64,000 nt of DNA, from NCBI GenBank assembly GCA_016647705.1, contig CM028335.1, positions 1,550,001 to 1,614,000 on the forward strand, given 5' to 3'. This DNA comes from Eucommia ulmoides. Lineage: Eukaryota; Streptophyta; Magnoliopsida; Garryales; Eucommiaceae. A program made the translations under genes and the position numbers. The number at the start of each line of letters is the position of its first letter. Position 1 is the stretch's first letter. This document shows, in pieces, positions 1 through 37,350 of the stretch. The notes beneath the pieces are model-generated. The model saw only the letters and a program-made list of their open reading frames with translations, was not told the origin of the DNA and did not search any database.

Positions 1-444
1 TTCCGTCATTACGGAGGTTTGAGGAAGGTCAGATATACGTAATCTTACTCCTGCATACGTAAAGACTTTTTGTTTTCAAATAAAAATCAAAATAAATGTC
101 AATTTTGTTTATTTCAAGTAGAATCTCGATTATTAAAAAAATAAATTCACCCATTTTTTTTCATATATTGTTTAGTTAAACCAGAAAAAAAAGAAAAAAA
201 GTTTTCCAATATATTATTCGTAGAACGGGGTAAAATATAGGCTTTAAAAGTGGAGGGAACGAAATCGAAATAATATCAAAGTATAGGATATAAAAGGTAA
301 TTAATAAACCCTATCTCTCTCTCTCTCTCTCTATCTATATAGAGAGAGAGACACTGCCACCATTAATTGAAACTATATATTTCTTCATCATCTTCGCAAA
401 GAAGTACTAATTTCGTTGGGGGGAAAAAGAAAAGAGCAAGGAAA
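1..444. promoter_or_regulatory. 5' flank of the Ole e 1-like gene
   Basis: AT-rich upstream sequence ending in a CT/GA microsatellite (about 314-352) and a TATA-like tatctatatag just before the first exon. It probably holds the promoter and 5' leader of the plus-strand gene starting at 445. No other gene is seen. Confidence 0.4.
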
Positions 445-855
445 ATGGAGAGAATGGTTAATTTAGTGATGTTGGGAGGTTGTGTTCTTCTGATGATCAT
501 CAATGGTGGTGTTGAAGCTTGGAAGGAAGGTGAGGTCTTCCATGTCGGTGGCAAAGTATTGTGCCAAGACTGCACCCAAGGCTGGAATGAATGGGTCAAT
601 GGTGCCAAGCCTATCAAAGGTAAACCAATGGATAACCAAGAAAAACCGAACTAAATGATCCGGTTTTAAAATCGATTAAATGGTTTAGTTGTGGTTTTAA
701 CTTTGAAATTAGCAACTAAAACGATTTTAGTTTTAGTTTTAGTTTTGGGATAGTAACCGCATAACCGAATCACTAAATTGAATAACGAAACTAATATTTT
801 AAATATATTTTCATGACATATATACCTTATTTTTTTATATATTTATATTTTAACC

Positions 856-912
<57 letters not shown>

Positions 913-1668
913 TTTATTTTAATTATCGTTATATTTTAATTATAGTAAAAATGTTTATTGTAACAATTAATAGTTTTTGTAGTTTTGTTTAGGTTTTTGA
1001 AATTTATATTTTATATTTTAATTATGTTTTTGTTTTATATATACAAAACAACGATATGTGGTTTTGTGGTTCTGTTTTTGGTTTTTTATAAAATTGAAAA
1101 ATCTTAAATGGTTTCGCGCTGTTTTGGTTTTGTATATATTTAAATAGTTCGGTTTTAAAAACTATTTTTTTTTTAAAAAAAAAGGCAATTTTGGTTGTGA
1201 TTTTGATTTAATATATGTCTTAACGGTTTTTATTTTAGTTTTATATGAAACCGGATAGAGACCGAACCATTACATCCCTTCTCACTGTCTAATCACATTT
1301 TTGTTGGGTGTTATACAGGTTGTAAGGTATCCGTCACTTGCATGGATGACCGGAGCAGAGTGGTTTACTACGGCAGCGACGAGACCGACGATGCCGGCGA
1401 TTTCGAGATGATCGTCAACAGGTACGTCAACGGGAAGAAACTCAACACCAACAGCTGCTTTTTCCGGCTAGTTTCGTCGCCGGACCCAGTCTGCAACATA
1501 GCCACCGACTTCGCCGGAGGACTGAAGGGGGTGAAGCTCAGCCGGCCGGCGGTGGTGTACAGGGATATGGTAAAACATGTGCTGGGTCCTTTCTACTACA
1601 CCACTCCCATGTGCGATGAACCAGATACCACTGATTCTACTCATGATGGAAAACAAAGCAACTACTGA
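445..1668 (+). CDS. Pollen Ole e 1-like (extensin-family) secreted protein, unit A
   Basis: Two exons, 445-619 and 1319-1668, joined in frame across a phase-1 GT...AG intron (620-1318), giving 174 residues. The chosen ATG starts a hydrophobic signal peptide (about residues 1-25, ending GGVEAW); an upstream in-frame ATG at 367 would put charged residues ahead of it. The mature part has the Ole e 1 domain cysteines: CQDC in exon 1, then CKVSVTC, SCFF, PVCN and TPMC in exon 2. It also has the YYGSDETD and GPFYYTTPMC segments typical of the plant Ole e 1/extensin group. Such proteins are secreted to the wall or apoplast; the exact role is unknown. A partial copy lies at 20,074-20,411. The intron carries an (AT)n tract. 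This is the only complete copy in the window. Confidence 0.85.
858..908. repeat. (AT)n microsatellite in the Ole e 1 intron
   Basis: About 50 bp of pure AT dinucleotide inside the intron of the Ole e 1-like gene. A counterpart is at about 19,632-19,671 in unit C, which shows the introns are duplicated copies. Confidence 0.9.
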
Positions 1669-3183
1669 TTTTTACCTTTTTTTTTTTAATGTTTAATTGA
1701 TGTATTTGTTTTATCGGGTGTTGAAACTACCAATTAAACCTAACTGTTTTGTTAACCGATCAGTCTTATTGCCAATTCGCAGACTAATTTACTCGTATTA
1801 AATGAATTGTTACCTTTCATATACGTATTGTTACCTAAAAACGCGGAACAAATATAGTATTATACGAAGGATGAAACTGAAAACGAAACCTGCTAATTTC
1901 TGCTACTTGTGATTAATTGTTGTTCAATGATCTGTTTTTACACAACAATGATGTATAAATCATCATTTTCAGGATGAGATCTTATTAATATTTTTTTTAA
2001 TTTTAATTCTGGATTTGGATGCATGTGAATGTTATATGTAACATCATTACAATATGTGTGTCTCGTGAGTGTTAAATATAACATTCAATGCAATAACACA
2101 AATTATATGAATGTAACGTGACTATATGATAACACTCAATTGTGTTTAGGTTAATGTATAGGACTGTGTTGAATGTAACACGAATGTGAAAAATGAAAAT
2201 TCTGAAAGTACCATTTTGAATGTAATACAAATCTGAAAACTAATAAAAAAATAGTGAATGTGATCTCATTTTGAAGATCTTATTTAGATCGTAACAAAAT
2301 GTGTACAATAATAGTTATTTTGATTTTAATAAAATGATTTTGTTGTGAAAATCGTTACATATGGGAATAAAGATTAAATATGGAAAATCTCCAGCTCGCG
2401 GATCTCGAAATGACAGATTTGTCATGTAAATTTCGGGATTTTTTAAATTTGGAATTGGATGGTTCGAAAAATCTGTAATCTGAGATTATTTGGTTCCTTT
2501 TCAAACAGTTAGAATCAATTGATAATATCATATTTAAATTGGGATAACCCAATCATTTTTCCAAATTTTTATCCATGAAATAAAATTTAATTATCATTAA
2601 ATAATGGTGTGTGAAAAATAATTATTTAATTTAATGGAAAAATAACTCTATAATTTCTAAAAATTATATTAAAAAAAGGGTGTTTAATTACTCGGTCTCT
2701 TTGGACCCAAATTGTTTTTTTCCATAAATTGAGCAGTCATTTTAGAATATATAGACATATCTGTCTCTCTAAACAACAATTATATTTTATATTTACGGTC
2801 TCAATAATTTTTACAAATATATATTCCAAAATTTGATGGTAGTTACCATAATTAATCAATTAAAACATTTTTTTTGTAAAATCATCCAATTAATCATTAT
2901 GTAATTTTTTTCATCAACACATTATACTGAAATAATCATCTTTTTTTTTTTTTTTTTTAATCTTTAAAATGATACTTGATCGTGTGTTTTGGATCGAAGA
3001 AAAAAAATCACGTTCATGTAAAAAAAAATGATACTCTCTCTCTCTTGTTCATGTAAAAAAAAATGATACTTTCTCTCTCTTATTTTTTGATCTATACATA
3101 CCTAAAACATAAATAGTGGAGGTTGTAAGATAGAAGTAAATTCTATCTTTTTAATTTTTCCAACTTAGTTGAAAGCCTAATAG
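1669..3183. other. Intergenic spacer between Ole e 1 and PR-1, unit A
   Basis: No gene seen. AT-rich DNA with short scattered palindromes of the type GTTANATGTAAC. From about 2,300 it matches 12,958-13,854 (unit B) and 25,320-26,213 (unit C). The stretch 2,040-2,110 is the empty-site counterpart of the LTR retrotransposon insertion at 20,977-25,103. Confidence 0.7.
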
Positions 3184-3789
3184 TAGGGATGGTCATGGGC
3201 CGTGCCGGGTCAGGCTTAGATTAGTGTATTACAAAAAACGTTGGGCCCTAGTCCAGCCCGGCCCGGTGATCGAGCCTTAATTCTATGCCCAAGCCCGGCC
3301 CTATAAGAAAATTTTAAGCCCAAAGCCCGGCTCACGGGCCCTTGGCCCTATTTTTTTTTTTTCAAATTTCAAAAATAAATACAAAATATTCAACACCAAA
3401 CCAATAAGAAATATTAAAATTACAATTTCTAAAGGTAAACCAATATTTCAAACAGACCAAACCAACAAGAAATATTAAAATTACAATTTCTAAAGGTAAA
3501 CCAATATTTCAAAAAGATCAAACCAATAAGAAATATTAAAATTACAATTTCTAAAGGAAACCAATATTCCAAATATTAGGGTTGTATATATATATATTTT
3601 TAAATATCCTTCAGGCCGGGCAGGGCAGACCCTAAAATTTTTGGGTCTTGCCCAAGCCCCGGCCCTAATTTTGATCTGGTTAGGCTCAGGCCCGGTCCGT
3701 GGACACAAACCCTAAGCCCAAGTCCTAAAAAAATAGGGTCGGGCCGTTCAGGCTGGGCGGGCCCCCAAGCCGATGACCAAAACTATTAG
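3184..3789. mobile_element. hAT-type MITE at the PR-1a 3' end
   Basis: A 606-bp element rich in gggccgggcc/ggcccaagccc motifs. It starts TAGGGATGGTCATGGGC and ends in a degraded inverse of this. Flanking 8-bp duplications are CCTAATAG (3176-3183) and ACTAATAG (3790-3797). The 8-bp duplication and TAGGGATG terminus fit the hAT superfamily. No transposase frame is present. The same insertion occurs in units B and C, so it predates the triplication. The right duplication contains the PR-1a stop codon. Confidence 0.75.
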
Positions 3790-3790
3790 A

Positions 3791-4261
3791 CTAATAGGGG
3801 CGCTCCCCGACGTAATTGCCCGAGGGATAGTAGCTGCAGATAATGAAATACATGCCATTGCGGCACTTAACCCTAGCACAACCCAGATGCTTTGTGTCAC
3901 GCCAGACAACCTGGGTGTAGTGGAGGCACTCTCCGCCAACGCAAGAATTGGAGCGGTGATCGTAATAGGCCTTCTCTCCCGCCCACATGTTGACTGCATC
4001 TGCCGCTGAGAATTCACCACCGCCCATTGCAAGGTTTTCGCCGTAGGGTCCCATAGAGTGCTCCATCTCGCATGACCTGCTACTCTTAATAGCGTATCTT
4101 GTGGCGTAGGCGGCCAACGTGCGGTTCCACCTTAGAGGCGGAACCCCGATTTGTGCACGAAACTTGTTGTGTGAATTAACAAAGTTTTGGGCAAGAGAGT
4201 AATGAGCCATGGACAATGCCACAATAGAAATAATGGCTAGTGAAAGGTTTGGGAGGCCCAT
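3791..4261 (-). CDS. PR1: Pathogenesis-related protein 1 (CAP superfamily), copy a
   Basis: Single-exon 156-residue PR-1. The start is the ATG at 4261-4259 (MGLPNLSLAI); the frame extends upstream only through a non-ATG codon. Residues 1 to about 24 form a signal peptide ending HYSLAQ. CAP features: NSHNKFRAQIGVPPLRW, YGENLA, then CLHYTQVVWR, with the family's His-Glu-His residues and all six disulfide cysteines (SC, SC, GEC, LGC, VKC, IIC). The C-terminus CSYYPSGNYVGERPY fits the CAPE1 pattern PxGNxxxxxPY, a defence peptide released from PR-1 in tomato. The protein is probably apoplastic and defence-linked. A TATA box lies about 60 bp upstream. A hAT element is inserted at the stop codon, so the 3' UTR is transposon-derived. 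It differs from copies b and c at only a few residues (for example NGMYF and PSGN here). Confidence 0.92.
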   Translation of the reverse strand: MGLPNLSLAIISIVALSMAHYSLAQNFVNSHNKFRAQIGVPPLRWNRTLAAYATRYAIKSSRSCEMEHSMGPYGENLAMGGGEFSAADAVNMWAGEKAYYDHRSNSCVGGECLHYTQVVWRDTKHLGCARVKCRNGMYFIICSYYPSGNYVGERPY

Positions 4262-4320
4262 TCTTAACTCTTTTATGGAGTATTTGAACAAGTGTGATTA
4301 GGACAAAGATTAATGTGGGT

Positions 4321-4327
4321 ATTTATA
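4321..4327 (-). promoter_or_regulatory. TATA box of PR-1a
   Basis: TATAAAT on the minus strand, about 60 bp upstream of the PR-1a ATG, and conserved in the other two copies. Confidence 0.7.
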
Positions 4328-4559
4328 GTGGAACATGTTAGAGAAAATAGGATTGCCTTTTCTAAGATTACAGTTGTGTTTGTTTATTTCAGGATGTTAA
4401 AGTATTTTAAACAAAGACTATTAGAGTTGTCATTGTTTATTTTAGAACACTCCATTCCCTGTTTGATGAGATTAGAGATAACCTAGAGATTTAATATTAT
4501 TTTACTATTAAAAGGGGTTAAATATAGGGTATGCACCATTAACTCCCAAAATATGAAAG

Positions 4560-4920
4560 AAATTACTGATTTAGTTTATCACATTTTTTTTTGCACCAAT
4601 AACTTTTTTTTGTCTTTTTTTGACCAAAATACTCCTTATATAGATGTTGAATATAACATTTAACACACGTGGATGTTGAATGTAATATCAATCGTTTTTT
4701 TTTTTCTTTTTTTCTTTTTATGTTATATTGTTCTAACCAAAAGAGCCTTCACGTGAATATTGAATGTAACATTCAACACTTGTAGATGTTAAATGTAACA
4801 TCAATTATTATTATTATTATTATTATTATTATTTTTTACGATATTACATTTAACATCTGTAAATGTTGAATGTAACATCAATCGTTCTCATATTTTTATA
4901 AATCGTATTATGTGTTGATG
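4560..4920. repeat. Imperfect array of GATGTT-AATGTAACATC units, unit A
   Basis: Repeated short segments such as gatgttgaatgtaacatcaat, each partly palindromic (GATGTT...AACATC), interleaved with poly-T and an ATT trinucleotide run. Related arrays are at about 15,250-15,520 and 27,600-27,860. It lies in the distal PR-1 promoter region. Function unknown. Confidence 0.6.
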
Positions 4921-4924
4921 TTAC

Positions 4925-5270
4925 TGATGTTGCCAAAAAATTCCCGGCACATATAACAGCTCCGCATGTGCCGGAAATCTCCACAACCTACATCTCTAAC
5001 CTGACAACCTACAAAGCCGATTAGTTCTAAAGGGATACCGATGAGATGTCAACCAAAGAACCTCCGACGTGAAAATAAATTAGTTTGCTTTAGGACGTGC
5101 CAGAAATCTCCACAACTTACATCTCTAACTTAACAACCTACAAAGCCGATTAGTTCTAAGGGGACACCGATGTGGTGTCAACCAAAGAACCTCCGACGTG
5201 AGAATAAATTAGTTTGCTTTAGGATATCAAGCAAAAGATTGCATTGTAAAAATAATGTGATATATTTATC
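4925..5270. repeat. Tandem duplicate of about 160 bp upstream of PR-1a, LTR-like
   Basis: Two successive copies of a block with cgtgccagaaatctccacaac, caacctacaaagccgattagttctaa and gaacctccgacgtgaaaataaattag. The wording resembles decayed LTR sequence of plant retrotransposons, but no clear ends are visible. Unit C has the same duplicate (about 27,880-28,170); unit B has one copy (about 15,530-15,690). Confidence 0.5.
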
Positions 5271-6429
5271 TTTTTTATAGACTGAGCAGATTACGACTGT
5301 TGGAGATGGGTGATCTAGTCTTTGATGACTTGGTTTTCCTTTATTATGTTGTTATTCGATAGAGATTTAATGAGGAGTTACACCATTAGTGAGGAGTTAT
5401 GCCCTTTTGGCTCCTCCATTTAAGTGTGAATTAAATTATTTGACCTTCCACTTGATGGATCCGTATATGGATCATCGGTTTGGACCAACGTTCACGACTC
5501 GACTCCTTTGGAGCATTGAGCTTATTGTGATGGACTTTATATGAATTTTATTTTTTAAATAAAAATATATTTAAAATGATTAATCAATTGGAGGTCCTAT
5601 GTTAAACACTTTAATGTCAATAGTAGCTGTTTTCGGCGGACTTAAAAAGAAATTATAATAAAATTATAATATTATAATTTGTTTATTTTGATTGCAATAT
5701 TAAAAAACGGATGCATAAATTTTAATAAGAAATGACGTTTTATAAATAGCGAATATTAAAATATTATTAAAAATTACATAAAAATCATAAAAGTGAAAAA
5801 ATATTTCTATAAATTAACTTTTACTAATATACTATAAAATAGCAAATAAATAATCATAAATGTTAATTAATTTTATCAATTTTTGCAAGTCAACAAATTC
5901 TAATTTATATTGTATTTGCTTTTTTTTTGGGGGGTAAAAATATTTTTTGAATCACATTAATTTTTTCAAATAATTTAAAAATATGGACAAAAAAATAATA
6001 ATTATATATTTGTGCATTAATTAGGAAAAAATTAAATTAACCAAAACAAAAAAGAGACAATTGAGTAGTGCAACTCAATATATAAAAAAAATAAAAAAAT
6101 AAAAATATGTAAGGACTCACCAAAAAGTCTAAAAAATATATTCTCTAATCTCATTAAAACCTTCTATCTCTTTCCAATTATTTGGGTAAGAATTTTTCTC
6201 CCGAGATTTTAACAAAACAATTTTAACCCTCTATCTTTCATAAAAATCGATCTCAACCGTTACATAATAGATATTTTCAAATGTCGTCCTAATTTATAGT
6301 ATAGACTTGGGGTTTTTTATGCCTAAAGACATTATCTTAATTTTTTAATTTATAAATATAAAAAAAAATCGGGATAATCGACGGGAAGTCTCAAATAATA
6401 GATTTAATTTAAAAAAAATCTCGCTTAAG
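5271..6429. other. AT-rich spacer, unit A
   Basis: No gene seen. Very AT-rich sequence collinear with 15,700-16,795 and 28,200-29,329. Confidence 0.6.
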
Positions 6430-7389
6430 ATATAAGTTTGGGATAAAGACCTTTTTGGTTCCTGACAAATACCTCGGGTGTCCAATTAGCCCCTAACTTT
6501 TGCAACTCAACAATTTGACTCTTGACATTTCAAAATCGTTCCAAATTGGCCCCTGAGGCAGATTTCGTTAAGTCAATTAACGGTCAACGTTTCATTAAGG
6601 GTATTTTAGTCTTTTTATTCAATGAGGTTAATTTGAAAAGTCATCTAAACTTAAGGGGTCAAAATATTTTTTCTTCTTCCTATTTTCCCTACATGGTTGC
6701 ATGGCTTTCTTTCTCAATTGAGTGAGAGAGAGAGAAAATCTTATACAAATCTGGGAACAAATCTGAAACACAAATAGAACCCTCCCATATTGAAACAAAA
6801 ATCTGGGAACAAATTTTGAAGCTGACGAATAGGACCCTGCCATATTCAAACAAACAAATTTCGTTGTCGTCTTCTTCGTCGGCAAATGTAAATGTTGCTA
6901 AATTTGAACGTGTAATTTCAACAACAAATTTATGGGAACGGAACAGAATTTATGGGAACAAAACAACATTTTTTTTTTGGAAATATTATTTGATTTTTTT
7001 TTCATTAAAAGGGGAATTAAAAACCCCAAGGAATACAAAAGGAATGACAGATCCAACCAAACCAAATATAAACCTCTACGAAATAGGAAATCGGAGCAAA
7101 ATTAAGGGATAATTCCATTATATTCTAAAACTTTTGTGCTAAAAATAAGGAAGAAGAACATAATCATATTTTTTTTTCCGCTTCCATATTAAAACACAAA
7201 TCTGAGAACAAAAATATTAAACAAATAGGGCCTTAAACATCAACACCGCTGAACAGCACCACCAAAACGAACATCAACATCAAAACGAACACCATCACCA
7301 ATAACATCAACACCAACGAACACCACCACCAAAACGAATAACAATACCGACGAACACCGAAATTACGAAGAACACCGCCGAAATTGAAC

Positions 7390-7880
7390 CTTAGGGTTTC
7401 GATTTCGATTTCGAAATCGAAACTGAAGAACATGGCACGAAGAACACCGCCGAACACCACCACCAAAATGACGAACACCGCCAAAATTGAACCTTAGGGT
7501 TTCGATTTCTATTTCGAAATCAAAACAGGAAATCGATTTTGAAATTGAAATCGAAATCGAATAACACCGCCGAACATCGTCACCAAAACGACGAACACCA
7601 TCGGAATCGAACTAGGGGTTTTGATTTTGAAATCGAAATAGGGTTTCGATTTAGGTTTTGATTTCGATTTCGAAATTAATTTCGAAATCGAAATCGAAAT
7701 AGAGAAAAAGACGAAGACGACGTAGGTGAATGAACCACAGTTTCGATTTCGAAATCGATTTTGAAGCCCTGTTTTGATTTGGGTTTTGATTTCAAAATCG
7801 AAACCCAAATCGATTTTGATTTTGAACAGGGTTTCGATTTAGGTTTCGATTTCGATTTTGAAATCAAAATCGAAATGGAA
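7390..7880. repeat. GATTTCGAAATC palindrome array in MULE-A
   Basis: Dense runs of gatttcgatttcgaaatcgaaatcg, in which GATTTCGAAATC is a perfect 12-bp palindrome. Long open frames on both strands here, rich in FRNR/SKSKPKSKP, are by-products of this repeat and are not called as genes. Confidence 0.8.
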
Positions 7881-8074
7881 ATAGAGAAGAAGACGAAGAC
7901 GACGAACGTGATGGAGAAGACGACGATGAAGTCGACGTAGGTGATGGCAAAGAAGACGAAGACGACACTGGTGAACGAAGGATCGGAGCACGTGTCGCCG
8001 ACGTGGCAGAGGGATCGGAGGTGCCGTTGGCGAGGAAAGAAGAGGAGGTGTTGGCGGCGGTGAGGGAGAGTAGC

Positions 8075-10699
8075 TGTCACAACCCGTCCCGGACACCCGT
8101 CATCCCGAGGCTAGCGTGACTATAACATGACATTACCAAAATTCCAAATAAACTAATGAAATAAACTATACATACACTTAATAATACAAACATCTATTAT
8201 GGGGGACACGCCCGTCCCATTATTTATGAACTGAAAGTATTTATCCATGAACCTTTTATAGGTTCGCCTTTGACAGCTTCTATCGATCGCCTATATGACT
8301 TCATCACATAGTTCTACCTAGTGCCAGTAGGGGACCGACTCCTAGCTGTTGTACCTGCGAGTGTACTGCCTTCTTAGTAAAATATTTTTAAAATAATGAC
8401 ACATTCTAAATATTACCATAATTAAATATGAATCAAGCATAAGTATATAAGCAGTGAAAATAAGCGATATAGATAAGTTTCATCTAGTATAAATCATACC
8501 GATCACCATAATAAATAATAAATCATCAAATATAAGAAAAATACCACATCTCAAACACACACCTCAAACACACATCTCAAACACCTCACTCCACCACAAC
8601 ACACACACTGGCTAGCCATAGTGATCATTTTAACCTCACGATCGGGAGTTGCAACGGTACCGTACCATTCGTAGGATATGCCTTCCTACGAACACCCATC
8701 ACTCCGCCGAAGCAGATAATCACTACGCAGTATAAACGTCTAACATCACTCTGTCAAAGCAGATAAACATCACTCCGCTGTAGCGGATAACATCACTCCG
8801 CCGAAGCAGATAACATCACTCCGCCGAAGCGGATAATATCATTCTACCAAAACAGATGAATACTATGACATCGTTAAATCAAATACAGCATCATCAAATC
8901 ACAACCCAATAAATATCGTCTATTCAACATCGTCAAATCACCACGTCTATCCCTTTTCTTCAAAACCAACTTTTAAATCCAAAAATCATATTTCACACTT
9001 TCTTTTAAAGAAAACGTCCGATTTTATTAAAACTACTTTTCCCCCCTTTATTTTTAGGAAACCAGGCATTTTTAGAAAAATAGATGTTTCTTATTCTCTT
9101 TTTAAAAACACAATCTAATTCCACCAAATCCAGCGGAAATTCATTTTCAATTTCCTTTTTGAAAACTATCGAAATCCAATTTACCAACTCATTCAAATCC
9201 TGCTTGATCCATATCATTTATTCATACAGTTTAAATAATCACATATTTCATCATATATATTCATAGAAAAATAGTTTGGCAAGAAGGCAGTACACTCACC
9301 TCGATATCCGTTTTGCAAAACTAACACTGACCGCACTCTATCTGGACGTCAGTGCCTACGAACCTAATAGTGGTAGAGTCTAAATTAATATATTATCTAA
9401 AACATCTTAATCATGCAATGCAGACCCTATATCCCGAATCTTTACTAATTTTATGTACCACGTACTTAAAATTAATTAATCGTCACGAAATTATTATGAT
9501 TTTAGGATTTGTAATACTAACTAAAATTTAATTTAACGAGAATTAATAATCAATTGAAGTTTCACCTATTTTCGAAACGTTTGGTGACCACGAAATGAGT
9601 TTTGGATTTTTCTGGGGTGGTTTCTGCAATTTCCCCCCCCCTTTTTTTTTTTCCTGTTTCCCGTCCTGTCTCAGCCCATTTCTCTCTCTCTCTCTCTCTC
9701 TCCCCTGTTTCTGTTCTTCTTCCTTCTTCCGACCACGTCTGTCGCTGACCCCTCTCTCACTCCTCCTTCACTGACCGCCGGCGACCACCTCCTGTCCACC
9801 CACGCCCACACACACATTCACCGGCCAAACCGATGGTCACCCACACAAACCCATGTCAGTTGAATAGTATACACACACACACACACGGTTGGATCACAAA
9901 CACACACACCCAGAACACATAAACGCACAGCCACCGCCGGCCAACCTACACCAACGATCACCCCCACCCATGCACACACGCCGTTCCTGTTTCTGTTTTG
10001 TTGGGTTCTCGCCGACACAACACACACAACGTCGCTGACGATTGACAACCCACATACGCCGGTGACGACGGAACAGCACCGACCGAAGGGACACCTAACG
10101 ACCTCACTCACCAACCGCTCCTTGCCGACTGCCGAACTTTCTCCCCTCTCTTTTTTTTTTTTTTTTTTTTTTTTCTGTTTTCTGGTTTTGGTCCAACCGA
10201 CATACTCACACACCCACACGGTCACTATCGACGACGGGCATACTGCCGACGATACACTGACCAACAAACAAAACACACACCCACGCTTGCACATACCCAC
10301 TCCATCCGCACATTCCCTCACCGGCGGCGACACCGACAACGGACAACCGGAACCCACACCTGCGAACCCCTCTCTCTCTTCCCTTCTCAATTCTTCTCCC
10401 ATTTTTCTCTATATTTCTGCGTGTATATATATGTGTGTATGCATGTCCTAGAAGCCGGCCACCTGGCCTTTCTCCTCACCGCCATTTCCACAGCTTCTCT
10501 CTCTAAAAGTGTATAATTGCACTTAAGCCCCTTTATTTTAATTAAACATCAAGTTTTATTTAAATGTTTTAAACATTTGCAATTTGGTCCCCTAACTTTT
10601 AAATCACATCTTAATTTTTGAAACCCGCCCCGCTATTTTCGAAATATTATAAAAATGCAACAAAAATTATTTGCATTTTAAAAAAATCGGGGTCTCACA
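8075..10699. mobile_element. Probable solo LTR nested in MULE-A
   Basis: Begins TGTCACAACCCG and ends GGGGTCTCACA (TG...CA), flanked by the 5-bp duplication GTAGC (8070-8074, 10700-10704). Unit B at about 18,405 has the uninterrupted site gagagtagcggtag. No gag-pol frame is inside, so a solo LTR of 2,625 bp is the simplest reading. Because the following bases also happen to match, a 9-bp duplication of a MULE-type insert cannot be fully excluded. It contains about 23-bp repeats of catcactccgccgaagcagataa (8,700-8,850) and CA-rich sequence (9,800-10,350). Confidence 0.65.
8700..8850. repeat. Short tandem repeat inside the solo LTR
   Basis: Several imperfect units of about 23 bp reading catcactccgccgaagcggataa. 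Confidence 0.6.
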
Positions 10700-14414: not shown

Positions 14415-14415
14415 T

Positions 14416-16795: not shown

Positions 16796-16805
16796 ATATA
16801 AGTTT

Positions 16806-26213: not shown

Positions 26214-26772
26214 TAGGGATGGTCATGGGCCGGACTGGGTTCGGGCCCAGTTTAGACTAGTGTATTACCAAAAATGTTGGGACCTAGTCCGTCCCGGCCC
26301 GGTGATCGGGCCTTAATTCTATGCCCAAGCCCGGCCCTATAAGAAAATTTTAAGCCCAAAGCCCAGGCCACAGGCCCCCGGTCCTATTTTTTTTTTTTTT
26401 AAATTTCAAAAATAAATATAAAATATTCTACATCAAACCAACAAGAAATATTAAAATTATAATTTCTAAAGGTAAACCGATATTCCAAACAAATCAAATT
26501 AATAAGAAATATTAAAATTACAATTTCTAAAGGAAATCAATATTCCAAATATTAGGGTTGTATATCTATATATATATTTTTAAATATCCTTTGGGCCGGG
26601 CCGACCTTAACATTTTTAGGTCTTGCCCAAGCTTGGCCCTAATTTTGATAAGGCCCTAATACCTAGGCCCAGGCCCGGTCCGTGGACACAAACCCTAAGC
26701 CCAAGCTCTAAAAAAATAGGGTCGGGCCGTTCAGGCTGGGTGGGCCCCCAAGCCCATGACCAAAACTATTAG
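26214..26772. mobile_element. hAT-type MITE at the PR-1c 3' end
   Basis: Third copy of the same ancestral insertion. The left end is TAGGGATGGTCATGGGC; the right end is modified exactly as in unit A (gaccaaaactattag). The flanking duplication ACTAATAG is at 26773-26780. Confidence 0.78.
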
Positions 26773-26773
26773 A

Positions 26774-27244: not shown

Positions 27245-27303
27245 TCTTAACTCTTTTATGGAGTATTTGAACAAGTGTGATTAGGACAAAGATTAATGTG
27301 GGT

Positions 27304-27310
27304 ATTTATA
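27304..27310 (-). promoter_or_regulatory. TATA box of PR-1c
   Basis: TATAAAT on the minus strand, about 60 bp upstream of the ATG. Confidence 0.7.
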
Positions 27311-27599
27311 GTGGAAGATGTTAGAGAAAATAAGATTGCCTTTTCTAAGATTACAGTTGTGTTTGTTTATTTCAGGATGTAAAAGTATTTTAAACAAAGA
27401 CTATTAGAGTTGTCATTGTTTATTTTAGAACACTCCATTCACATGAGATTAGAGATAACCTAGAGATTTAATATTATTTTACTATTAAAAGGGATTAAAT
27501 ATAGGGTATGCACCATTAACTCCCAAAATGTGAAAGAAATTACTGATTTAGTCTATCATATTTTTTTTTTGCACCAATAACTTTTTTTGTCTTTTTTTA

Positions 27600-29329
27600 C
27601 CAAAATACTCCTCATATGGATGTTGAATGTTACATCAATTGATTTTTTTTTATTTTTTTATTTTTTATTTTTTATTTTTTTTTATCTTTTTCTGACCAAA
27701 ATACCATTCACGTGGATGTTAAATGTAACATTCAACACTTATGGATATTAAATGTAACATCAATTGTTCTTTATTTTTTTTACGATATTATATTTAACAT
27801 CTGTGGATATTGAATGTAATATTAATCATTCTCATGTTTTTATAGATCGTATTATGTGTTGATGTTACTGATGTTGCCAAAAAATTCCCGGCACATATAA
27901 CAACTCCGCACGTGCCAGAAATATCCACAACCTACATCTCTAACCTGACAACCTACAAAGCCGATTAGTTCTAAGAGGGCACTGATGTGATGTCGGCCAA
28001 AGAACCTCCGACGTGAAAATAAATTAGTTTGCTTTAGAACGTGCCAGAAATCTCCACAACCTACATCTGTAACTTAACAACCTACAAAGCCGATTAGTTC
28101 TAAGGGGACACCGATATGGTGTCAGTCAAAGAACCTCCGACGTGAGAATAAGTTAGTTTGTTTTAGGATATCAAGCAAAAGACTGCATTGTAAAAATAAT
28201 GTGATATATTTCCCTTATTTATAGACTGAGCAGATTACGACCGTTGGAGATGGGTGATCTAGTCTTTGATGACTTGGTTTTCCTTCATTATGTTGCTATT
28301 CGGTAGGGATTCAATGAGAAGTTACACCATTAGTGAGGAGTTACGCCCTTTTGGCTCCCCCATTTAAGTGTGAATTAAGTTTTTTGGCCTTCCACTTGAT
28401 GGATCTGTATATGGATCATCGGTTTGGACTAACGTCCACGACCCGGCTAGCATTGAGCTTATTGTGATGGGCTTAATATGAATTTTATTTTTTAAATAAA
28501 ATTGGAGGTCCTATGTTAAACACTTTAATGTCAATAGCAGCCGTTTTCGGCGGACTTAAAAAGAAATTATAATAAAATTTTAATATTATAATTTCTTTAT
28601 TTTGATTGCAATATTAAAAAACGGATGTATAAATTTTAATGAATAATGACGTTTTATAAATAGCGAATATAAAAATATTATTAAAAATTACATAAAAATC
28701 ATAAAAGTAAAAAAATATTTTTACAAATTAACTTTTATCAATATACTATAAAATAGCAAATAAATAATCATAAATGTTGATGAATTTTATTAATTTTTGC
28801 AAGTCAACAAATTTTAATTTATATTGCATTTACTTCTTTTTTTTTGGGTAAAAATATTTTTTGAATCACATTAATTTTTTCAAATAATTTAAAAATATGG
28901 ACAAAAATAAAATAATTATATATTTGTGCATTAATTAGAAAAAAAAATAAATTATTGAGTAGTGCAACTCAATATGTAAAAAAAAATAAAAATAAAAAAA
29001 TATGTAAGGACTCACAAAAAGGTTTGAAAAATATATTCTTTAATCTCATTAAAACTTTCTATCTCCTTCCAATTATTTGGGTAGGAATTTTTCTCCCGAG
29101 ATTTTAACAAAACAATTTTAACCCTCTATTTTTCATAAAGATCGATCTCAATCGTTACACAATAGATATTTTCAAATACCGTCCTAATTTATAGTATAGA
29201 CTTGGGGTTTTTTATGCCTAAAGACATTATCTTAATTTTTTAATTTATAAATATAAAAAAAAAAAAAATAGGGATAATCGACCGGAAGTCCCAAATAATA
29301 GACCTAATTTTTAAAAAGTCTCGTTTAAG
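27600..29329. other. Spacer upstream of PR-1c
   Basis: No gene seen. GATGTT-AATGTAACATC units, the duplicated LTR-like block (27,880-28,170) and AT-rich spacer, collinear with unit A. Confidence 0.65.
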
Positions 29330-29339
29330 ATATAAGTTT

Positions 29340-30250
29340 ATGATAAATATCTTTTTTGTCTCTAACAAATGCCTCGGGTGTCTAATTGGCCCATAACTTT
29401 TGCAACTCAACAATTTGACTCTTGACATTTCAAAATCGTTCCAAATTGGCTCCTGAGACAGATCTCGTTAAGTCAATTAACAGTCAACGTTTTGTTAAGG
29501 ATATTTTAGTCTTTTTATTCAATGGGATTAATTTGAAAAGTCATCTAAACTTAAGGGGTCAAAATATTTTTTTTTCCTATTTTCCCTAAATGGTTGCATG
29601 GCTTTCTTTCTCAATTGAGTGAGAGAGAGAAAATCTTATACAAATCTGGGAACAAATCTGAAACACAAATAAGACTCTCTCATATTGAAACAAAAATTTG
29701 GAAACAAATTTTGAAGCCGACGAATAGGACCCTCTCATATTCAAATAAACAAATTTCGTCGTCGTCTTCTTCGTCGGCAAATGTAAATATTGCTAAATTT
29801 GAACGTGTAATTTCAACAACAAATTTATGGGAACGAAACAAAATTTATGAGAACAAAAATGAATTCATGGGAACAAAACAACAATTTTTTTTTGGAAATA
29901 TTATTTGATTTTTTTTCGTTAAAAGGGGAATTAAAAATCCCAAAGAATACAAAAGGAATGACCGATCCAACCAAACCAAATACAAACCTCTATGGAAGAG
30001 GAAATAGGAGTAAAACTAAGAGATAATTCCATTATATTCTAAAAATTTTGTACTAAAAATAAGGGAGAAGAACATAATCATATTTTTTTTTCACTCCCAT
30101 ATTAAAACACAAATCTGAGAACAAAAATACTAAACAAACAGGGTCTTAAACATCAACACCGCCGAACACCACCACCCAAACAAACATCAACATCAAAACG
30201 AACACCACCACCAATAACATCAACACCAAAGAGCACCACCACCAAAACAA
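29340..30250. mobile_element. Truncated Mutator-like element, unit C
   Basis: The left end is degraded (atgataaatatcttttttgtc after ATATAAGTTT). Sequence then matches units A and B until about 30,250, where it switches to unrelated DNA. The right inverted repeat is absent. Confidence 0.75.
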
Positions 30251-30467
30251 TAGTAGTTTTAATTAAATTAATTAAAAATGATTAAAAAATTAAAAAAACG
30301 TGAATAGACCATTTTGTCCCTAAATTCCGTTAGTTTTAACTGATTTTTTAACGGAATGACCAATTTGAAACGTTATGATATGTAGAGGGTTTGAAATGAA
30401 ACGTTTAAATTTAAAGGGATCACTTAGAAATATGTCAATAGTTAGAGGGTCTAAATTGTACTTTTTC
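30251..30467. other. Unrelated insert replacing the right half of the unit C MULE
   Basis: About 215 bp resembling the end of another transposon (phrases such as ttgtccctaaattccgttag and tagagggtctaaattgtact), then collinearity with unit B resumes at tttgttatatataacaaaattttat. No gene. Confidence 0.5.
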
Positions 30468-31435
30468 CTTTGTTATATATAACAAAATTTTATACACAAA
30501 ATTGTTTTATGTAACCGCGTCTGTGCAAGCACGTGTAGTAGGCTTCCGTTTTTTTTAAATAGGCAAGATTAAAAGTGAAATAAGAAGGTGACGTTTGGTA
30601 ACCGTTTCTGTTTCCATTCCAGCAGTGGGATGGGAATGGAATAGAATGGGATGGGATGAGAATTCTGTTTTCTTTTTGGGAGCAGAATCGCGTTTGGTAA
30701 CGAATAATTCTATTTTGATTTGGGAACAGAATCGTGTTTGGTAACGACAGAATCTATTTTGTTTTGGGAACAGAATAGCATTTGGTAAAGACATTTTTGT
30801 TTCTTTCTGAGAATAGAATTACGTTTAATAACAAATTTTTTTTTTTTTTTTTTTTTAAGTGTAGAATTGTTAGTGTAAAATCATTTTTTTTTCCTTTTTT
30901 TTTTTTATATTATTATTTTATTTTATGTGTATGATAATAAATATAAAATTACACTTAATTCAGGCAAATCATACGCAATGTAATTAAACATAGATGTTAA
31001 AATTATGTACGTACATACAAATTGTTTTGTTCTACAATATATGTTCATTTTCACATTTTCACATACTTAGATACAACAATTAGCTCAATGATGAGATGCA
31101 CAAGTAACATCATCAAAATTAGAATCGTATTACATCCCAAAAAAAAATGAAAACAAAATTCTTGTCAAATTTTAATGTCGAGGAGGGTCATAGTTGTTGA
31201 TCGCACTCATCTCTGCAAATAAAAAATAATTGAAATAGTTAGTGAAAAATTGATATATTATTGGTGTGATATTTATATAGAAAATATTAAAACTTATTTA
31301 ATTTATACAAATCGCATTTGAACTGTCCCAAATTGCTCGGGCAAGATTATCTCTAAAACGTCCCATTTCTCGTACACTTTGATTAGTAATCACGGGAGCT
31401 TCATCAGGTTCACGTCATTGTCTCAACGTACTCCC

Positions 31436-32698
31436 CTATTCCTCTTCTGCATACCCTTCCCTACTCCATATTTCAAATAAATTATCATTCATATCATACA
31501 TTTTTATAAAATTGTGAAGTGTACAACATGCAATTGGAATATACTTTTGTACGTCCATCTCATAGGAAGACATGCTCTTAAGGATTTTAAATCTCGCTTT
31601 AAGCACACCGAAACACCGCTCTACGACATTTCGAAGAGAAGAATGGCACTGATTGAATTTTTCTTCAAATCTCGTTGGCCGTTTATCTCGAAAATCTCGT
31701 AAGTGATATCTTTCCCCCCTGTACGGTGCCAAAAAGCCATGGGTATTTGTATACCCTGAATCCACAAGATAATATTTTTCTGTATTGTGTAATATCAGAG
31801 AGGCGTAATTCAATACATATAAAATCATTCTATATTTACACACATACCTTGAGGAGGTGTTGGAAAAATAGTTATCGGGTTATTCATACATTCTGAAATA
31901 ACCCTAGAGTCGTTGGCAGTTCCTTCCCAACCTGCATATGCATATGTAAACATCATATTGAAACTACATATACATATAACGTTTTGAGTAGTATCCACTT
32001 TACATCCTCGAAATGGAATTTGATCTTCTCGAGGAATTGATGCGGCAACGTGGGTGCCATCTATCGCCCCTACATAGTCCTATAAATATTCTTAAAAAGA
32101 TTAGTTCCAATATATATATTTTTTAATTCTAAGTACTATTTTTTTTTTTTGTAATAAAAAAAAATACGTTTACCTTAAAAAATGGGTAGAATCTCGAATT
32201 GTGCAGTATTTCCAGAGGGACTTTATTGAAATTTGGAGGCGCAATCAACTCTACACCTAATTTGCATATGGCCTTCAACACTTTCCGAAAATACACCGAT
32301 ACAGTTTGCGTTGAATGTTGAAAACGATCGGCAGTAAGTTGCATAGATTCACTATGTGATAAAATATATAAACAAATTCCTAATTGTTCTTGAACACTAA
32401 CATATCTACTCTGGTGAAGGTAACCTTTGGACACTAATAATTCACACAATAACTTAAATGTATCTTGGTGCATCCTAAACGTATCGTAACAACGTGCATC
32501 GTGTCCTTCTAATATTTCTTTAATATAATTACCACCCTGTAATACAGACGTCCGACAAGGTTGTTTCTCTACACGCTGAATGCATTGTGCCTTATCACCT
32601 AGATTTGAAACATTTTCTATGTCGTCCGCATCGTAAGCGTCAAACACGTTTTCAAGATCGGTTGTGTGTTCCCAATCAATTTCGTCTTCCGAATCCAT
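31436..32698 (-). CDS. PIF/Harbinger DDE transposase
   Basis: Three exons, 32174-32698, 31848-32079 and 31436-31779, join in frame to 366 residues. The N-terminal part is acidic, followed by a helical region (HQDTFKLLCELL, LTADRFQHSTQTVS). The DDE_4-type nuclease follows: AIDGTHVAASIP (first Asp), GTANDSRV (second Asp) and VERCFGVLKARFKIL (Glu). KYYLVDSGYTN, GFLAPYRGERYH and ACCTLHNFI are typical of the family. The protein should cut and rejoin the element ends with its Myb/SANT partner. All three catalytic positions and splice sites look usable. Confidence 0.9.
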
Positions 32699-33183
32699 TC
32701 TACAATATAGACAAACAAAAAATGAAACATAACCAACTACACACTAACTGCACACTTGCACACATAAAAAAACTGCACACTTGCACCCAAAAAAAAAACT
32801 CGCACAAATGAGGAAAATGAAACTGCACAAATTGAGGAAAAAAAACTGCACAGAAATGGCCAAAAGCCTGCACACATATGGAAGAAAAACTGCACATATA
32901 CACACAAATAAACCTGCACACATACACATAAACAGAAAAACCTGCACATCTCTTTAACATCAACATAAGTAGTAGAAATTTAAACACAATAATCGTCATC
33001 ATACTCGCACAAATTCAAACGCATATTCAACATAACTAGCAAACCATAATTGTCTTACACAGAACTAAATTCAAACACAACAGTCGTCTTGAACATAAAC
33101 ATAACTAAAAACAAAAGATGACCATTGTCCGACTTCAAATAAAACAAACACACTGAAATCATTGTATTACAACGCAAATGAAA

Positions 33184-34222
33184 TTAATTCTTTTCTTTCA
33201 TCACCCATGCAATTCGCGCTTCCGGAGGCATGCCCACTAACATAGTCCTATATGACACATTGTTAACCAATCGTTCGGCTGCATGTAGATATTTATCCAT
33301 GTCCTTAATACCCATAGCATTGAGGATTTCCATACATGAACCCAATTTCTCCTGAGCTTCACTAGCTGGGTTCGTAATTTTGGTTACGTTAGCAACTGAA
33401 GCATTTGATTTTGATGAGTATCGTGACAAATGTTCTTCAAGGATGTCACACCTTTTTTTCTGTCCTTCAGCAAACGACGTCGAGATAGATTCAAATGCCT
33501 CTCCCATACTATCCTTACGAACAAGTTTTTTTTTTCCCTTCACTTTTTTCTTTGAACTTTTTACACCTACCTCAACTACATCGTCATCACCCATCTCATC
33601 AGCCTTAGGCTCATACACAGGGTCAGTTTCATCCGATGAGGATGGGGGTTGGGTCGACGCATGCGCATATTTTCCCGTTGCAGTGGTATCCCCATAGATA
33701 ACGCACAACTTCGGGAATAAGGGACATCCATTTTTTTGAAAATGTTTTGCATACTTGTTGACCTATTATACATACAAGCAAAAATCAGTTTGTTAATCAT
33801 GTAATAAGCCAATAAGCATGACATATATAATTTCAAGATTAGAAGTACCAACATACCCCGGCCATTCGCTTCCACTGATCGTCGGAGGCGTATATCCTAC
33901 CAATCATCTTATCATATGTAAATCCTGCCCCTGTCTCCTTAAGTAATGAATTGAAACACCTATAGATAGTTCTCATCTTATTGAACTTGTTCTTAAGTTG
34001 TGCTAGGTCAAAAGTTAACCCCGTTCTTGTTTTCATTTCTTTCAAAATGGTGTTCCAACTGTCTTTGGTGAACGTTGTTGTTGTCCTATTACCCATAAGC
34101 ACTTCATTTTCCATTAATTCAACAAAAATATTAATATTATTGTCACTCCACAAATCTACCTTCGGTTTTGAGGTTCCCTCCGAAATAAGGACAACATTTT
34201 CTTCAGCATCAATGGTAGCCAT
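33184..34222 (-). CDS. Myb/SANT-like PIF/Harbinger ORF1 protein
   Basis: Two exons, 33857-34222 and 33184-33762, give 314 residues. Residues of about 24-120 form a Myb_DNA-bind_3-type domain (WSDNNINIFVELMENEV, TGLTFDLAQLKNKFNKM, IYASDDQWKRMAG). A lysine-rich linker (KSSKKKVKGKKK) that could be a nuclear signal follows, then a helical C-terminal part. In PIF/Harbinger systems this protein binds element ends and helps the transposase enter the nucleus. It resembles host L10-interacting MYB-domain proteins, but its location makes it a transposon gene. Confidence 0.85.
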
Positions 34223-34429
34223 CTACAATATAAGGTGTTTACTATGCAAAAAACTTAGAATATAAAATATATATGTAGTGCAGAACATAGAACAATTGAA
34301 ACAATAACCATCAAAAACCACTACCATTTGAAATTTTGACAACAGAACAGAAGCGTTCCCAAGAATCGCAACAGAACAGAACAGTAGATGTATGACAAAC
34401 ACATCTAGAATCGCAAACACAAACCCTAG

Positions 34430-34855
34430 AAATCGCAATCAGAGAAATCGCAAACAGAAACCCTAGAATCGCAACAGAACAGTAATGTATGATAAACACA
34501 AACCCTAGAAATCGCAAACAGAGAAATCGCGAACACGAACCCTAGAATCGCAACAGAACGGAACAGTTGTAATGTATGACAAACACAAACCCTAGAAATC
34601 GCAAACAGAGAAATCGCGAACTCAAACCCTAGAATCGCAAACCAATCTGACCCAAAACCCTCGCAAACAGAGAAATCGCGAACTCAAACCGTAGAATCGC
34701 AAACCACTCTGACCCAAAACCCTCGCAAACAGAGAAATCGCGAACTCAAACCCTAGAATCGCTAACCAATCTGACCCAAAACCCTTGCAAACAGAGAAAT
34801 CGCAAACTCAAACCCTAGAATCGTAAACCAATCTGACCCAAAACCCTAGATCTAG
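34430..34855. repeat. 62-bp tandem repeats with telomere-like AAACCCTA motifs
   Basis: At least four near-identical 62-bp units (about 34,599-34,846), each with cagagaaatcgcgaactcaaaccctagaatcgcaaacc and ctgacccaaaaccct. Shorter related units lie upstream. The array is between ORF1 and the right end of the Harbinger element, a position where such elements often carry protein-binding repeats. Confidence 0.8.
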
Positions 34856-35680
34856 GGGTTTGATTCTCATCAAACTCGGCAGACATTGCACACAAAAACA
34901 GGGAGAGAGAGAGAGAGATAGAGAGAGGGAGGGAGAGATAGAAGATTACCTGGTACTCGACGGATTGCAAAGCTTGAAATAGCGACAACGAGCGGCTTCA
35001 AGATAGCAACGACAAGCGAGGAACAAGGGAACAGGAGCCGACGAATAACGAGAGCAGCTTCGAAGAACGATGGGGAGTGAGGAGCTTCGAACGATCGATC
35101 GATCGTAGAAGTGAGAGGGAGAAGATCGCAGATCGAAGGAGGAGATCGATCGTAGAAGTGAGAGGGAGCAGATCGCAGAGAGCATATCGAAGGAGAAGAT
35201 CGCAAATCGCAGAGGTGAGGAGGACGATCGGGAATGAAAGAGAAAAGGAACTCATTAACAATTTTGATAATACCAAGCGTGTCCTTTGTTTTGGGATGGG
35301 AAGGGTTTTGAAGAAACGGTTTTTTTTTTGTTTTCAATTTTCTATACAATAAAATGGGCACAATTCCATATTGAAACGGAATGGAAACAAAAATAGCGGT
35401 TACCAAACACTATTTTCAACAGAAAATAGAAATGGGATGGGTTACCAAACGGGGCCGAAATCTCACACCGAATGTCACTAAAAAAATATTAATTAAATGC
35501 AAATGCAAAAATTGGTCAATAGGGATATCCTATCAGAAGCCGCCTTCGTGGCATTTGATGAGCGATGCAGAATCCGCCACGTGGACACTAAAATCGGGTC
35601 GGTGATGCGAGAAAACCCTCAGGCCCAAGCCCCGACTTATTGGAGCTGCTCTCCGACGAGGCCTGACCGATTCCTCCGCC

Positions 35681-37350
35681 ATGGCAGCTCGCGTCGCGAG
35701 AAAAATCGCAGCGGCGTCGCCGTTGCCGTTTCCGTCCTCGTCTATTCGAAGATCTCCGGTAAAGTACGCCTCTTCTCCGATCGCGATCGACGGCCATGGC
35801 GTCTCCAAACCGCGATGGTTCTCATCTTCTTCATCCTCATCATCGTCTTCGCCTCCTTCGTCTGCATCGCCGAAGCCGAATAAGAAGCTCACCGACCGTC
35901 TATCGTCCGTTATAGACGCCGTCAACGACCGGAAACTCCCGCCGGAACTTCGCGGTCAACGTAATGCCGTCAGGTATGTCGATGCTTCCATTTTTTATTT
36001 CCAAAATTGCCCTCCGTTTAATTGCCAGTTAAATTCCACAAAAAAGGTAGACGAAATCGATAATTCATGTTAATGCTCTTTTTACTATATGACTCTTCAT
36101 TATCATTTCATAATTAATCCTTTAATTATATGAGATTTAGTATAACAATTGTTAATCAATTTCATTAATTGCTATCCTTAATATATGTATATACCCCATA
36201 GGTGTTAGTCCAGTCGGCAAGAAGAGGCGCTCTCTCTCCTTGTCAATCAGGATTCAATTCTTCTGATACTCCAGCACTCCAGAATTAAATTTTGAATTCA
36301 GTAGACCAATGTGGGACAATGTGTCTTTAAGATCGCTCGGAGAGATGATTAGTTAAGGTGCGCGTAATTTGTCCGAACATGCTTTACTGTAAAATAAAAT
36401 AATATATATCTACATAGGCGTGGCCCACTAGATTAAACTCTAATGTTACTAGGAAAACTAAACCCTAATGCCACTGGCCTGTAGTGAATGTTTATATATA
36501 GGCCTTTTGTATATCTTTGTAACATCGTACCTTTCACATATATTAATACGATTGATTCATATTTTTTCTTAATATTCTGCCTCTAAAATGTTTTAACAAC
36601 TATTAATCATGAAAATATTATATAAAATTTTAATAATCTAATTGCATGTTACATTTGTATACAAAAAGACTTAACAATGCAAACAATGCAGTTTCATCTG
36701 CATTGTTACGTAAAAATGTATAGTTGAATATAACTTTTTTTTGCTAATGAGATATATTTACATAGAATGTAACTGTACTGATTGTAAAAAGTTATTATTC
36801 GAAACATGGAATCAAAAAAAGATTAATGTACATCTAACTGAACAGGTCAGAAACCGACATAATCAACGTTGTGGAGCAAAGAATATGGCATTCAATGGAG
36901 GAAGGCCAGTTCGAGAATTTACCAGGGAAAGGCAAACCGTTGGATCTGAGTACAAACCCTCATGCGGATCCTGCTGAGGATACACTGTATAGAATTCTCT
37001 CGAGAAATAATTGTGCTCCGGAATGGGTTGAACTTAACAAAGAGATTAGAGTTAAGATTAAGGAATGGAGATCGGTGTTGAAGAAAGCATGGACGTGCAA
37101 ATGCAATGGAGATGAATCAAAATGGATTGAGTTATCGGAGGGTTTGAAGAGTCAGTTGCCAGAGATTAATGACAAGGTTAGATGAGTGATTAAATCGAAC
37201 AATATTGTTTTTTTTTAAGCAAAGTTTGTTCTTGATGGAATTATGTTTTATTTGCAGGTTTTTAGGTATAATCTTATTGTTCCGTTTGGTCGGCAGATGT
37301 TTGGATTGAAATGGGAGAAAGAAATCGATCGATTGAACGAGGATAATTAG
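35681..37350 (+). CDS. DNAJC28-like DUF1992 protein, intact copy
   Basis: Three exons, 35681-35973, 36846-37176 and 37258-37350, join in frame to 238 residues. Residues of about 1-55 are Arg/Ser-rich with PRWFSSSSS, which looks like a mitochondrial (possibly plastid) presequence. The DUF1992 domain runs from about 60 to 170 (LTDRLSSVIDAV, ELRGQRNAVR, EQRIWHSMEEGQFENLPG, GKPLDLSTN, EDTLYRILS), followed by a conserved tail FGLKWEKEIDRLNEDN. The family is named after DnaJ homologue C28, but no J domain is present; the biochemical role is unknown. The Harbinger element ends about 220 bp upstream, so some promoter sequence may be transposon-derived. It is the only complete copy in the triplication. 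Confidence 0.88.
36202..36403 (+). mobile_element. tRNA-derived SINE-like element, DNAJC28 intron 1, unit C
   Basis: Counterpart of 11,671-11,871 with box A- and box B-like segments and an A-rich tail. Confidence 0.6.

What the first reader, a model, noticed from the sequence alone, without database searches (positions are those of the whole stretch)
1..37350. Segmental triplication of an Ole e 1 - PR-1 - DNAJC28 unit with complementary gene losses
Three units share order, transposons and spacers, yet each kept a different subset: A has Ole e 1 + PR-1 + DNAJC28 exons 2-3, B has PR-1 + DNAJC28 exon 1, C has Ole e 1 exon 2 + PR-1 + complete DNAJC28. PR-1 is the only gene intact in all three, which suggests selection for PR-1 dosage while the passengers decayed.
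Basis: partly seen in the sequence, partly recalled or inferred. Interest (0 to 1): 0.75.

Follow-up and report, generated by a model that had tools for sequence, protein, structure and literature searches.

The report
Tandem triplication around a PR-1 gene
A stretch of a plant chromosome holding a defence-protein gene (PR-1) was duplicated in tandem until three whole copies of that gene stood side by side, while the two neighbouring genes were mostly cut by the duplication break points; this is an ordinary kind of gene-family growth, with one odd, well-preserved leftover exon.

Summary
The triplication is in the assembly. Three direct, adjacent units (A about 821-12,958; B 12,959-19,578; C about 19,587-37,497) differ by 7-9% in non-coding DNA. 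PR-1 is open and complete in all three. The only whole Ole e 1-like gene found lies at the left end (A), the only whole DNAJC28 at the right end (C). B's 'DNAJC28 exon 1' is an 85-bp stub with a stop codon.

'Complementary losses' is largely explained by break-point geometry: a tandem duplication cut inside two flanking genes leaves one whole copy of each at the outer ends and stubs at the junction. A's missing DNAJC28 exon 1 needs a deletion.

PR-1 is under purifying selection overall (6 of 365 non-synonymous against 8 of 103 synonymous sites, P = 0.004). For C alone low mutation or gene conversion is not excluded (no synonymous change of its own). Dosage selection is untested.

'Passengers decayed' fits DNAJC28 in A, but not Ole e 1: C's headless exon 2 has 1 change in 260 non-synonymous sites against 9% in flanking DNA. 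That is the one surprising point. Overall: a known process, low to moderate interest.

The parts
445..619 (+). Ole e 1-like gene, exon 1 (unit A side; not duplicated)
   Evidence: tblastn, splice donor read; PF01190 on the spliced protein
1319..1668 (+). Ole e 1-like gene, exon 2, unit A
821..12958 (.). Unit A
   Evidence: self-BLAST
3184..3790 (.). hAT-like insertion beside the PR-1 stop codon, unit A (counterparts in B about 13,862-14,415 and C 26,214-26,773)
   Evidence: alignment with the C7 copies, target duplication CTATTAG(A/G); element name recalled
3791..4261 (-). PR-1 gene, unit A
8075..10699 (.). LTR-like insertion in A (TG...CA, target duplication GTAGC), empty site in B
   Evidence: class inferred from its ends only
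11583..11585 (.). Deletion junction in A removing DNAJC28 exon 1
12314..12644 (+). DNAJC28 exon 2 in A (no exon 1)
12726..12818 (+). DNAJC28 exon 3 in A
12955..12960 (.). Junction J1 (A|B): DNAJC28 3' flank joined to the spacer after Ole e 1; 2-5 bp microhomology
12959..19578 (.). Unit B
   Evidence: self-BLAST
14416..14886 (-). PR-1 gene, unit B
19494..19578 (+). DNAJC28 exon 1 stub in B, 85 bp, TGA at codon 23 (19,560-19,562)
19578..19587 (.). Junction J2 (B|C): inside DNAJC28 exon 1 joined to inside the Ole e 1 intron, about 8 bp unassigned
19587..37497 (.). Unit C
   Evidence: self-BLAST
20074..20411 (+). Ole e 1 exon 2 in C (no exon 1), conserved
20976..25103 (.). LTR retrotransposon in C (LTRs of about 798 bp, target duplication AATGT), empty site in A
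26774..27244 (-). PR-1 gene, unit C
30588..35402 (.). PIF/Harbinger-like element in C (DDE_Tnp_4 / Plant_tran nuclease pieces, Myb/SANT protein); approximate ends
   Evidence: element name recalled
35681..35973 (+). DNAJC28 exon 1 in C
36846..37176 (+). DNAJC28 exon 2 in C
37258..37350 (+). DNAJC28 exon 3 in C

Best explanation
A tandem duplication cut inside the two genes that flanked PR-1 (the Ole e 1 intron and DNAJC28 exon 1) made a pair whose inner junction is J2. It left Ole e 1 whole only on the left and DNAJC28 whole only on the right, with PR-1 whole in both (the junction is shown; that it is a duplication junction is inferred). A second duplication, of the pair, from the spacer after Ole e 1 to the 3' flank of DNAJC28, made J1. 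One deletion, from upstream of DNAJC28 exon 1 in the first copy to DNAJC28 intron 1 in the next, then reduced four PR-1 genes to three and gave A its headless DNAJC28 (inferred; three events in all). The joined ends share few or no bases, so end-joining or template switching is likelier than crossing-over between repeats. The PR-1 proteins have since been kept by purifying selection (shown for the three copies pooled and for A alone; for C alone not separable from low mutation or gene conversion). Selection for more PR-1 product is plausible but untested.
For: Unit map and junctions. DNAJC28 and this Ole e 1 were each found whole once, at the native outer ends. B-C is the most diverged pair (non-coding p 0.091; AB 0.068, AC 0.076; block bootstrap BC>AB 1.00, BC>AC 0.993), and A changes affinity along its length (266 switches against 295 in shuffles, P = 0.002), as a later composite would. 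A-C non-coding divergence is lower in the DNAJC28 part (56/901) than in the Ole e 1 part (76/846), P = 0.03. PR-1: 6 of 365 non-synonymous against 8 of 103 synonymous sites changed over the three copies (P = 0.004); 2 amino-acid changes per copy against 8.1, 12.9 and 15.3 in a neutral simulation; all three frames intact in 0.0002 of 5000 runs; pairwise dN/dS 0.14, 0.22, 0.37.
Against: If C's Ole e 1 was cut at the oldest event its exon 2 should have drifted; instead it has 1 of 260 non-synonymous and 4 of 73 synonymous changes against 76 of 846 flanking sites. The mosaic could be gene conversion. The four-copy intermediate left no direct trace, and AB<AC has only 0.85 bootstrap support. For PR-1, B against C alone gives Fisher 0.18; C has no synonymous change of its own against 4.9 expected (P = 0.007), and the 213 bp upstream of the gene are also low (8 changes, P = 1e-4), so conversion or a cold tract may add to the low divergence.
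Confidence: 0.5

Rival explanations
1. One reading: whole units were duplicated twice, and separate later deletions at the unit boundaries removed Ole e 1 from B, its exon 1 from C, most of DNAJC28 from B and exon 1 from A.
For: Explains why C's Ole e 1 exon 2 carries the mark of long purifying selection: it would have been a whole gene until lately.
Against: Needs more events (two duplications and three deletions by my count). Under random loss the whole copies need not lie at the two outer ends. No trace of an original unit junction was seen. B's DNAJC28 stub already holds a stop.
Confidence: 0.3
2. Assembly artefact: allelic or repeated sequence was wrongly joined in tandem.
For: No reads were available to check it.
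Against: The units differ by 7-9% in non-coding DNA with different insertions; DNAJC28 has no second whole copy as a retained haplotype would give; the locus lies inside a 43.8-Mb contig.
Confidence: 0.06
3. PR-1 copies look alike through gene conversion rather than through selection.
For: C has no synonymous change of its own (P = 0.007) and the proximal upstream 213 bp are also low (P = 1e-4); unit affinities are mosaic.
Against: Pooled synonymous sites (8/103) do not differ from non-coding DNA (P = 0.34), whereas non-synonymous sites are far lower (P = 9e-12), and N<S pooled P = 0.004 and for A alone P = 0.007.
Confidence: 0.12

Closest known systems
Tandem PR-1 gene clusters of plants, e.g. 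CAPE-producing PR1 genes of tobacco (PMC13306947; passages seen)
   Same: Local clusters ascribed to tandem duplication, with dispersal to other chromosomes; Ka/Ks 0.089-0.278 for WGD/segmental pairs there, 0.14-0.37 between copies here.
   Different: Its tandem pairs were too alike for Ka/Ks. Here parts of two unrelated flanking genes were duplicated too and the junctions are readable; the cleavage site reads CSYY, not CNYx.
[quoted passage not shown] passages seen)
   Same: Whole middle gene plus truncated flanking genes at the junction.
   Different: A plant, two rounds, and copies 7-9% diverged instead of young polymorphisms.
The same assembly's PR-1 arrays on C7 (17.54-17.58 Mb and 8.85-8.90 Mb)
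   Same: PR-1 in small local arrays; the 17.5-Mb copies are 92-95% identical to those of the window over about 700 bp.
   Different: At 17.5 Mb one of three copies is frame-shifted with a stop and one lacks its ATG; they lack the hAT-like insertion.

Membership tests
Tandem segmental duplication | Adjacent direct copies sharing order and spacers beyond one gene | tested here: met
Tandem segmental duplication | Present in reads or in other accessions | not testable with these tools
   No reads; one search states that this genome has no relatives held
PR-1 (CAP superfamily) | CAP domain above the curated cut-off | tested here: met
   PF00188, 80.7 bits against cut-off 21.1; 80.6-81.5 bits at the three places; best solved relative a basic PR-1, 9lyt, E 7e-46
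PR-1 (CAP superfamily) | Six cysteines and a hydrophobic N-terminal leader | tested here: met
   Read from the translation; no signal-peptide predictor was run; feature recalled
CAPE-producing PR-1 | CNYx cleavage motif | tested here: not met
   Site reads CSYY; motif as in PMC13306947 passages
CAPE-producing PR-1 | C-terminal PxGNxxxxxPY | tested here: met
   PPGNYVGERPY in B and C, PSGNYVGERPY in A; consensus recalled
Dosage-selected amplification | Every copy constrained at the protein level | tested here: inconclusive
   Pooled N<S P = 0.004; A alone 0.007, B alone 0.07, C alone 1.0; against non-coding DNA all three are low
Dosage-selected amplification | Higher PR-1 output with a fitness effect | not testable with these tools
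   No expression or population data
Complementary loss after duplication | Partner genes were whole in each unit and then lost | tested here: inconclusive
   Geometry and divergence order argue against; conserved exon 2 of C argues for

The most novel reading that the evidence does not exclude
The headless Ole e 1 exon 2 in unit C is still used: either a splice from exon 1 of unit A, about 19.5 kb away, reads it as an alternative last exon, or an unrecognised new first exon drives it. A duplicate broken at birth would thus have been kept as an alternative exon or a new gene.
Probability: 0.1. Interest if true: 0.55.

Novelty: new member of a known kind. Interest (0 to 1): 0.3.

Why it matters
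The locus is a readable example of how duplication break points, more than later decay, can decide which neighbours of an amplified gene stay whole. Its insertions order the events: hAT-like insertion first, then the duplications (p 0.07-0.09), then the LTR element in C (K2P 0.039). The preserved headless Ole e 1 exon is a specific oddity that one transcript data set could settle.

Tried and rejected
A single-unit ancestor in related species could not be sought: states that this genome has no relatives held. The other collections are described as bacterial, archaeal, viral, phage, plasmid and metagenomic; I did not search them. A homologous whole unit on C7 was considered: only PR-1 with its near flanks and repeats matched there; DNAJC28 and Ole e 1 had no match in the two 70-kb C7 stretches and no DNAJC28 match outside this locus.

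Crossing-over between repeats was considered for J1 and J2 and set aside: the joined ends show 2-5 bp (J1) and no clear (J2) microhomology by eye.

A chimeric gene at J2 (DNAJC28 stub spliced to Ole e 1 exon 2) was considered: a TGA stands at codon 23 and the stub ends in the wrong phase. A crude scan of 17,500-20,072 found no first exon of 15 or more residues in the right phase with a donor matching 7 of 9 consensus positions; its printed acceptor was one base off, which does not alter the phase rule.

Gene conversion as the cause of the conserved Ole e 1 exon 2 was judged unlikely: differences resume 4 bp before and 6 bp after the exon, and synonymous sites (4/73) do not differ from non-coding DNA (P = 0.39). 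It is not excluded.

The order of A, B and C is not settled (AB<AC 0.85); a tree of the PR-1 module did not resolve them (support 45 and 56). One search counted changes by codon (A-C: 4 synonymous, 5 non-synonymous), by mutational paths, gives 5 and 4; I use.

Paper searches. No listed title or abstract start describes an Ole e 1 - PR-1 - DNAJC28 block; I opened only PMC13306947 and PMC5460883, and saw passages of each.
Full report
WHERE. The window is C11:1,550,001-1,614,000 of a 947-Mb assembly in 391 contigs.

OBSERVATION. Self-BLAST shows three direct, adjacent units. A runs from about 821 to 12,958, B from 12,959 to 19,578, C from about 19,587 to 37,497. B starts at the spacer after Ole e 1 (A 2298, C 25,334). 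C starts inside the Ole e 1 intron (A 821). A ends in the 3' flank of DNAJC28 (C 37,499). B ends inside DNAJC28 exon 1 (C 35,765). The 50 kb upstream gave no match at E <= 1e-3 to the three proteins. A 1.2-kb spacer query matched over its full length at these three places only, among the 40 of 3063 first-look candidates that were scored; about 500 bp of it is a dispersed repeat.

GENES. PR-1: 156 aa, intronless, minus strand, complete in A, B and C. Ole e 1-like: two exons in A (445-619, 1319-1668), exon 2 alone in C (20,074-20,411). DNAJC28: three exons in C (35,681-35,973, 36,846-37,176, 37,258-37,350), exons 2-3 in A, and in B an 85-bp stub with TGA at codon 23. Pfam confirms the families. 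In the assembly the DNAJC28 query has 6 exon-level matches, all at this locus. The Ole e 1 query has 4: three here and one 36%-identical on C4. CAP has 14 matches, a lower bound: three here, three on C7 at 17.54-17.58 Mb (one with a stop inside), three on C7 at 8.85-8.90 Mb, five elsewhere.

MARKERS OF TIME. A hAT-like element with an 8-bp target duplication sits beside the PR-1 stop codon in A, B and C and is absent from the three C7 copies aligned, so it predates the triplication. The three C11 copies also lack about 95 bp of proximal upstream sequence that the three C7 copies have. An LTR retrotransposon is in C, with target duplication AATGT and an empty site in A; B lacks the site. Its LTRs differ by K2P 0.039 +/- 0.007. 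Non-coding distances between units over 3792 three-way sites are AB 0.068, AC 0.076, BC 0.091. At assumed rates of 6.5e-9 to 1.3e-8 per site per year (recalled), B-C split 3.5-7 My ago and the LTR element inserted 1.5-3 My ago. Element class names are recalled, except that Pfam finds DDE_Tnp_4, Plant_tran and Myb/SANT domains in the element at about 30.59-35.40 kb.

HOW IT AROSE. A duplication with break points inside Ole e 1 and DNAJC28 leaves one whole copy of each at the outer native ends and a stub fusion at the junction. That is what J2 shows, so most of the 'complementary losses' need no loss. J1 has other break points and is a separate event. If the pair was then duplicated from the spacer after Ole e 1 to the DNAJC28 3' flank, and one deletion joined the left part of the first copy to the right part of the second, the order of units and A's missing exon 1 follow from three events. 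Consistent with this, B-C is the most distant pair (block bootstrap 1.00 and 0.993), A switches affinity along its length (P = 0.002), and A-C is closer in the DNAJC28 part than in the Ole e 1 part (56/901 against 76/846, P = 0.03). Gene conversion could also make the mosaic. The joined ends share at most a few bases.

SELECTION ON PR-1. Pairwise, 4 non-synonymous changes per pair lie in about 365 sites and 8 (AB), 5 (AC), 3 (BC) synonymous in about 103; dN/dS 0.14, 0.22, 0.37; Fisher P 0.001, 0.028, 0.18. Counted by copy, A has 2 non-synonymous and 5 synonymous changes of its own, B 2 and 3, C 2 and 0. Pooled, 6/365 against 8/103, P = 0.004; pooled synonymous sites do not differ from non-coding DNA (426/3792, P = 0.34). 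A neutral simulation scaled to the non-coding branches expects 8.1, 12.9 and 15.3 amino-acid changes, and all three frames stayed intact in 0.0002 of 5000 runs. Against a simple reading: by copy, N below S is significant only for A (0.007; B 0.07; C 1.0), C has no synonymous change where 4.9 were expected (P = 0.007), and the proximal upstream 213 bp are also low (8 changes, P = 1e-4). Conserved promoter, gene conversion, or both may contribute. On C7 at 17.5 Mb, of three copies one is frame-shifted with a stop and one lacks its ATG. Dosage selection is one possible reason for keeping three; it was not tested. In Drosophila yakuba whole-gene tandem duplicates rarely changed expression (PMC5460883, passages).

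SELECTION ON THE PASSENGERS. DNAJC28 exons 2-3, A against C: 6 non-synonymous changes (5 residues) in 344 sites and 5 synonymous in 82. This is below non-coding DNA (56/901, P = 0.0004), as expected if C is constrained, and compatible with a neutral A (10.7 expected, P = 0.09). A has changed GKG to GKD and FGR to FIR, residues that I recall as conserved. Ole e 1 exon 2, A against C: 1 non-synonymous in 260 sites, 4 synonymous in 73, against 76 in 846 flanking sites; if C had drifted, 11.7 changes were expected in C alone (P = 1e-4). C also differs by a 12-bp in-frame gap. The low-divergence block ends at the exon edges. So C's exon 2 looks constrained for most of the time since the copies split, although it now lacks exon 1. 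This is the main result against my preferred history.

VERDICT. The triplication is in the assembly and ordinary in kind. The conserved orphan exon deserves a transcript check.

Noticed in passing
window 20074-20411: Headless Ole e 1 exon 2 with strong non-synonymous conservation; see report.
   Followed up: partly
window 30588-35402: A PIF/Harbinger-like element ends about 280 bp upstream of the start codon of the only whole DNAJC28 found.
   Followed up: partly
C7:17,538,535-17,584,704 (L016-L021): A local array of the same PR-1 subtype, 92-95% identical over about 700 bp; one copy frame-shifted with a stop, one without its ATG, one intact.
   Followed up: partly
C7:8,850,000-8,901,000 (L023-L028): A further PR-1 array of another subtype (65-69% protein identity), three complete copies and one fragment.
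   Followed up: no
window 3184-3790, 26214-26773 and counterpart in B: A hAT-like insertion displaces the PR-1 3' flank in the three C11 copies while its target duplication keeps the stop codon.
   Followed up: partly
window 4262-4761 and counterparts: C11 copies lack about 95 bp of upstream sequence present on C7; a W-box-like TTGAC[CT] at about -364 is in A and B but not in C.
   Followed up: no
window 63004-64000 and L015: A unit of about 1 kb recurs three times (86-94%) in the next 10 kb downstream of the window.
   Followed up: no
window 22524-22996: Short tandem repeats inside the LTR element of C.
   Followed up: no
window 55998-56576: Short-period tandem repeat array.
   Followed up: no
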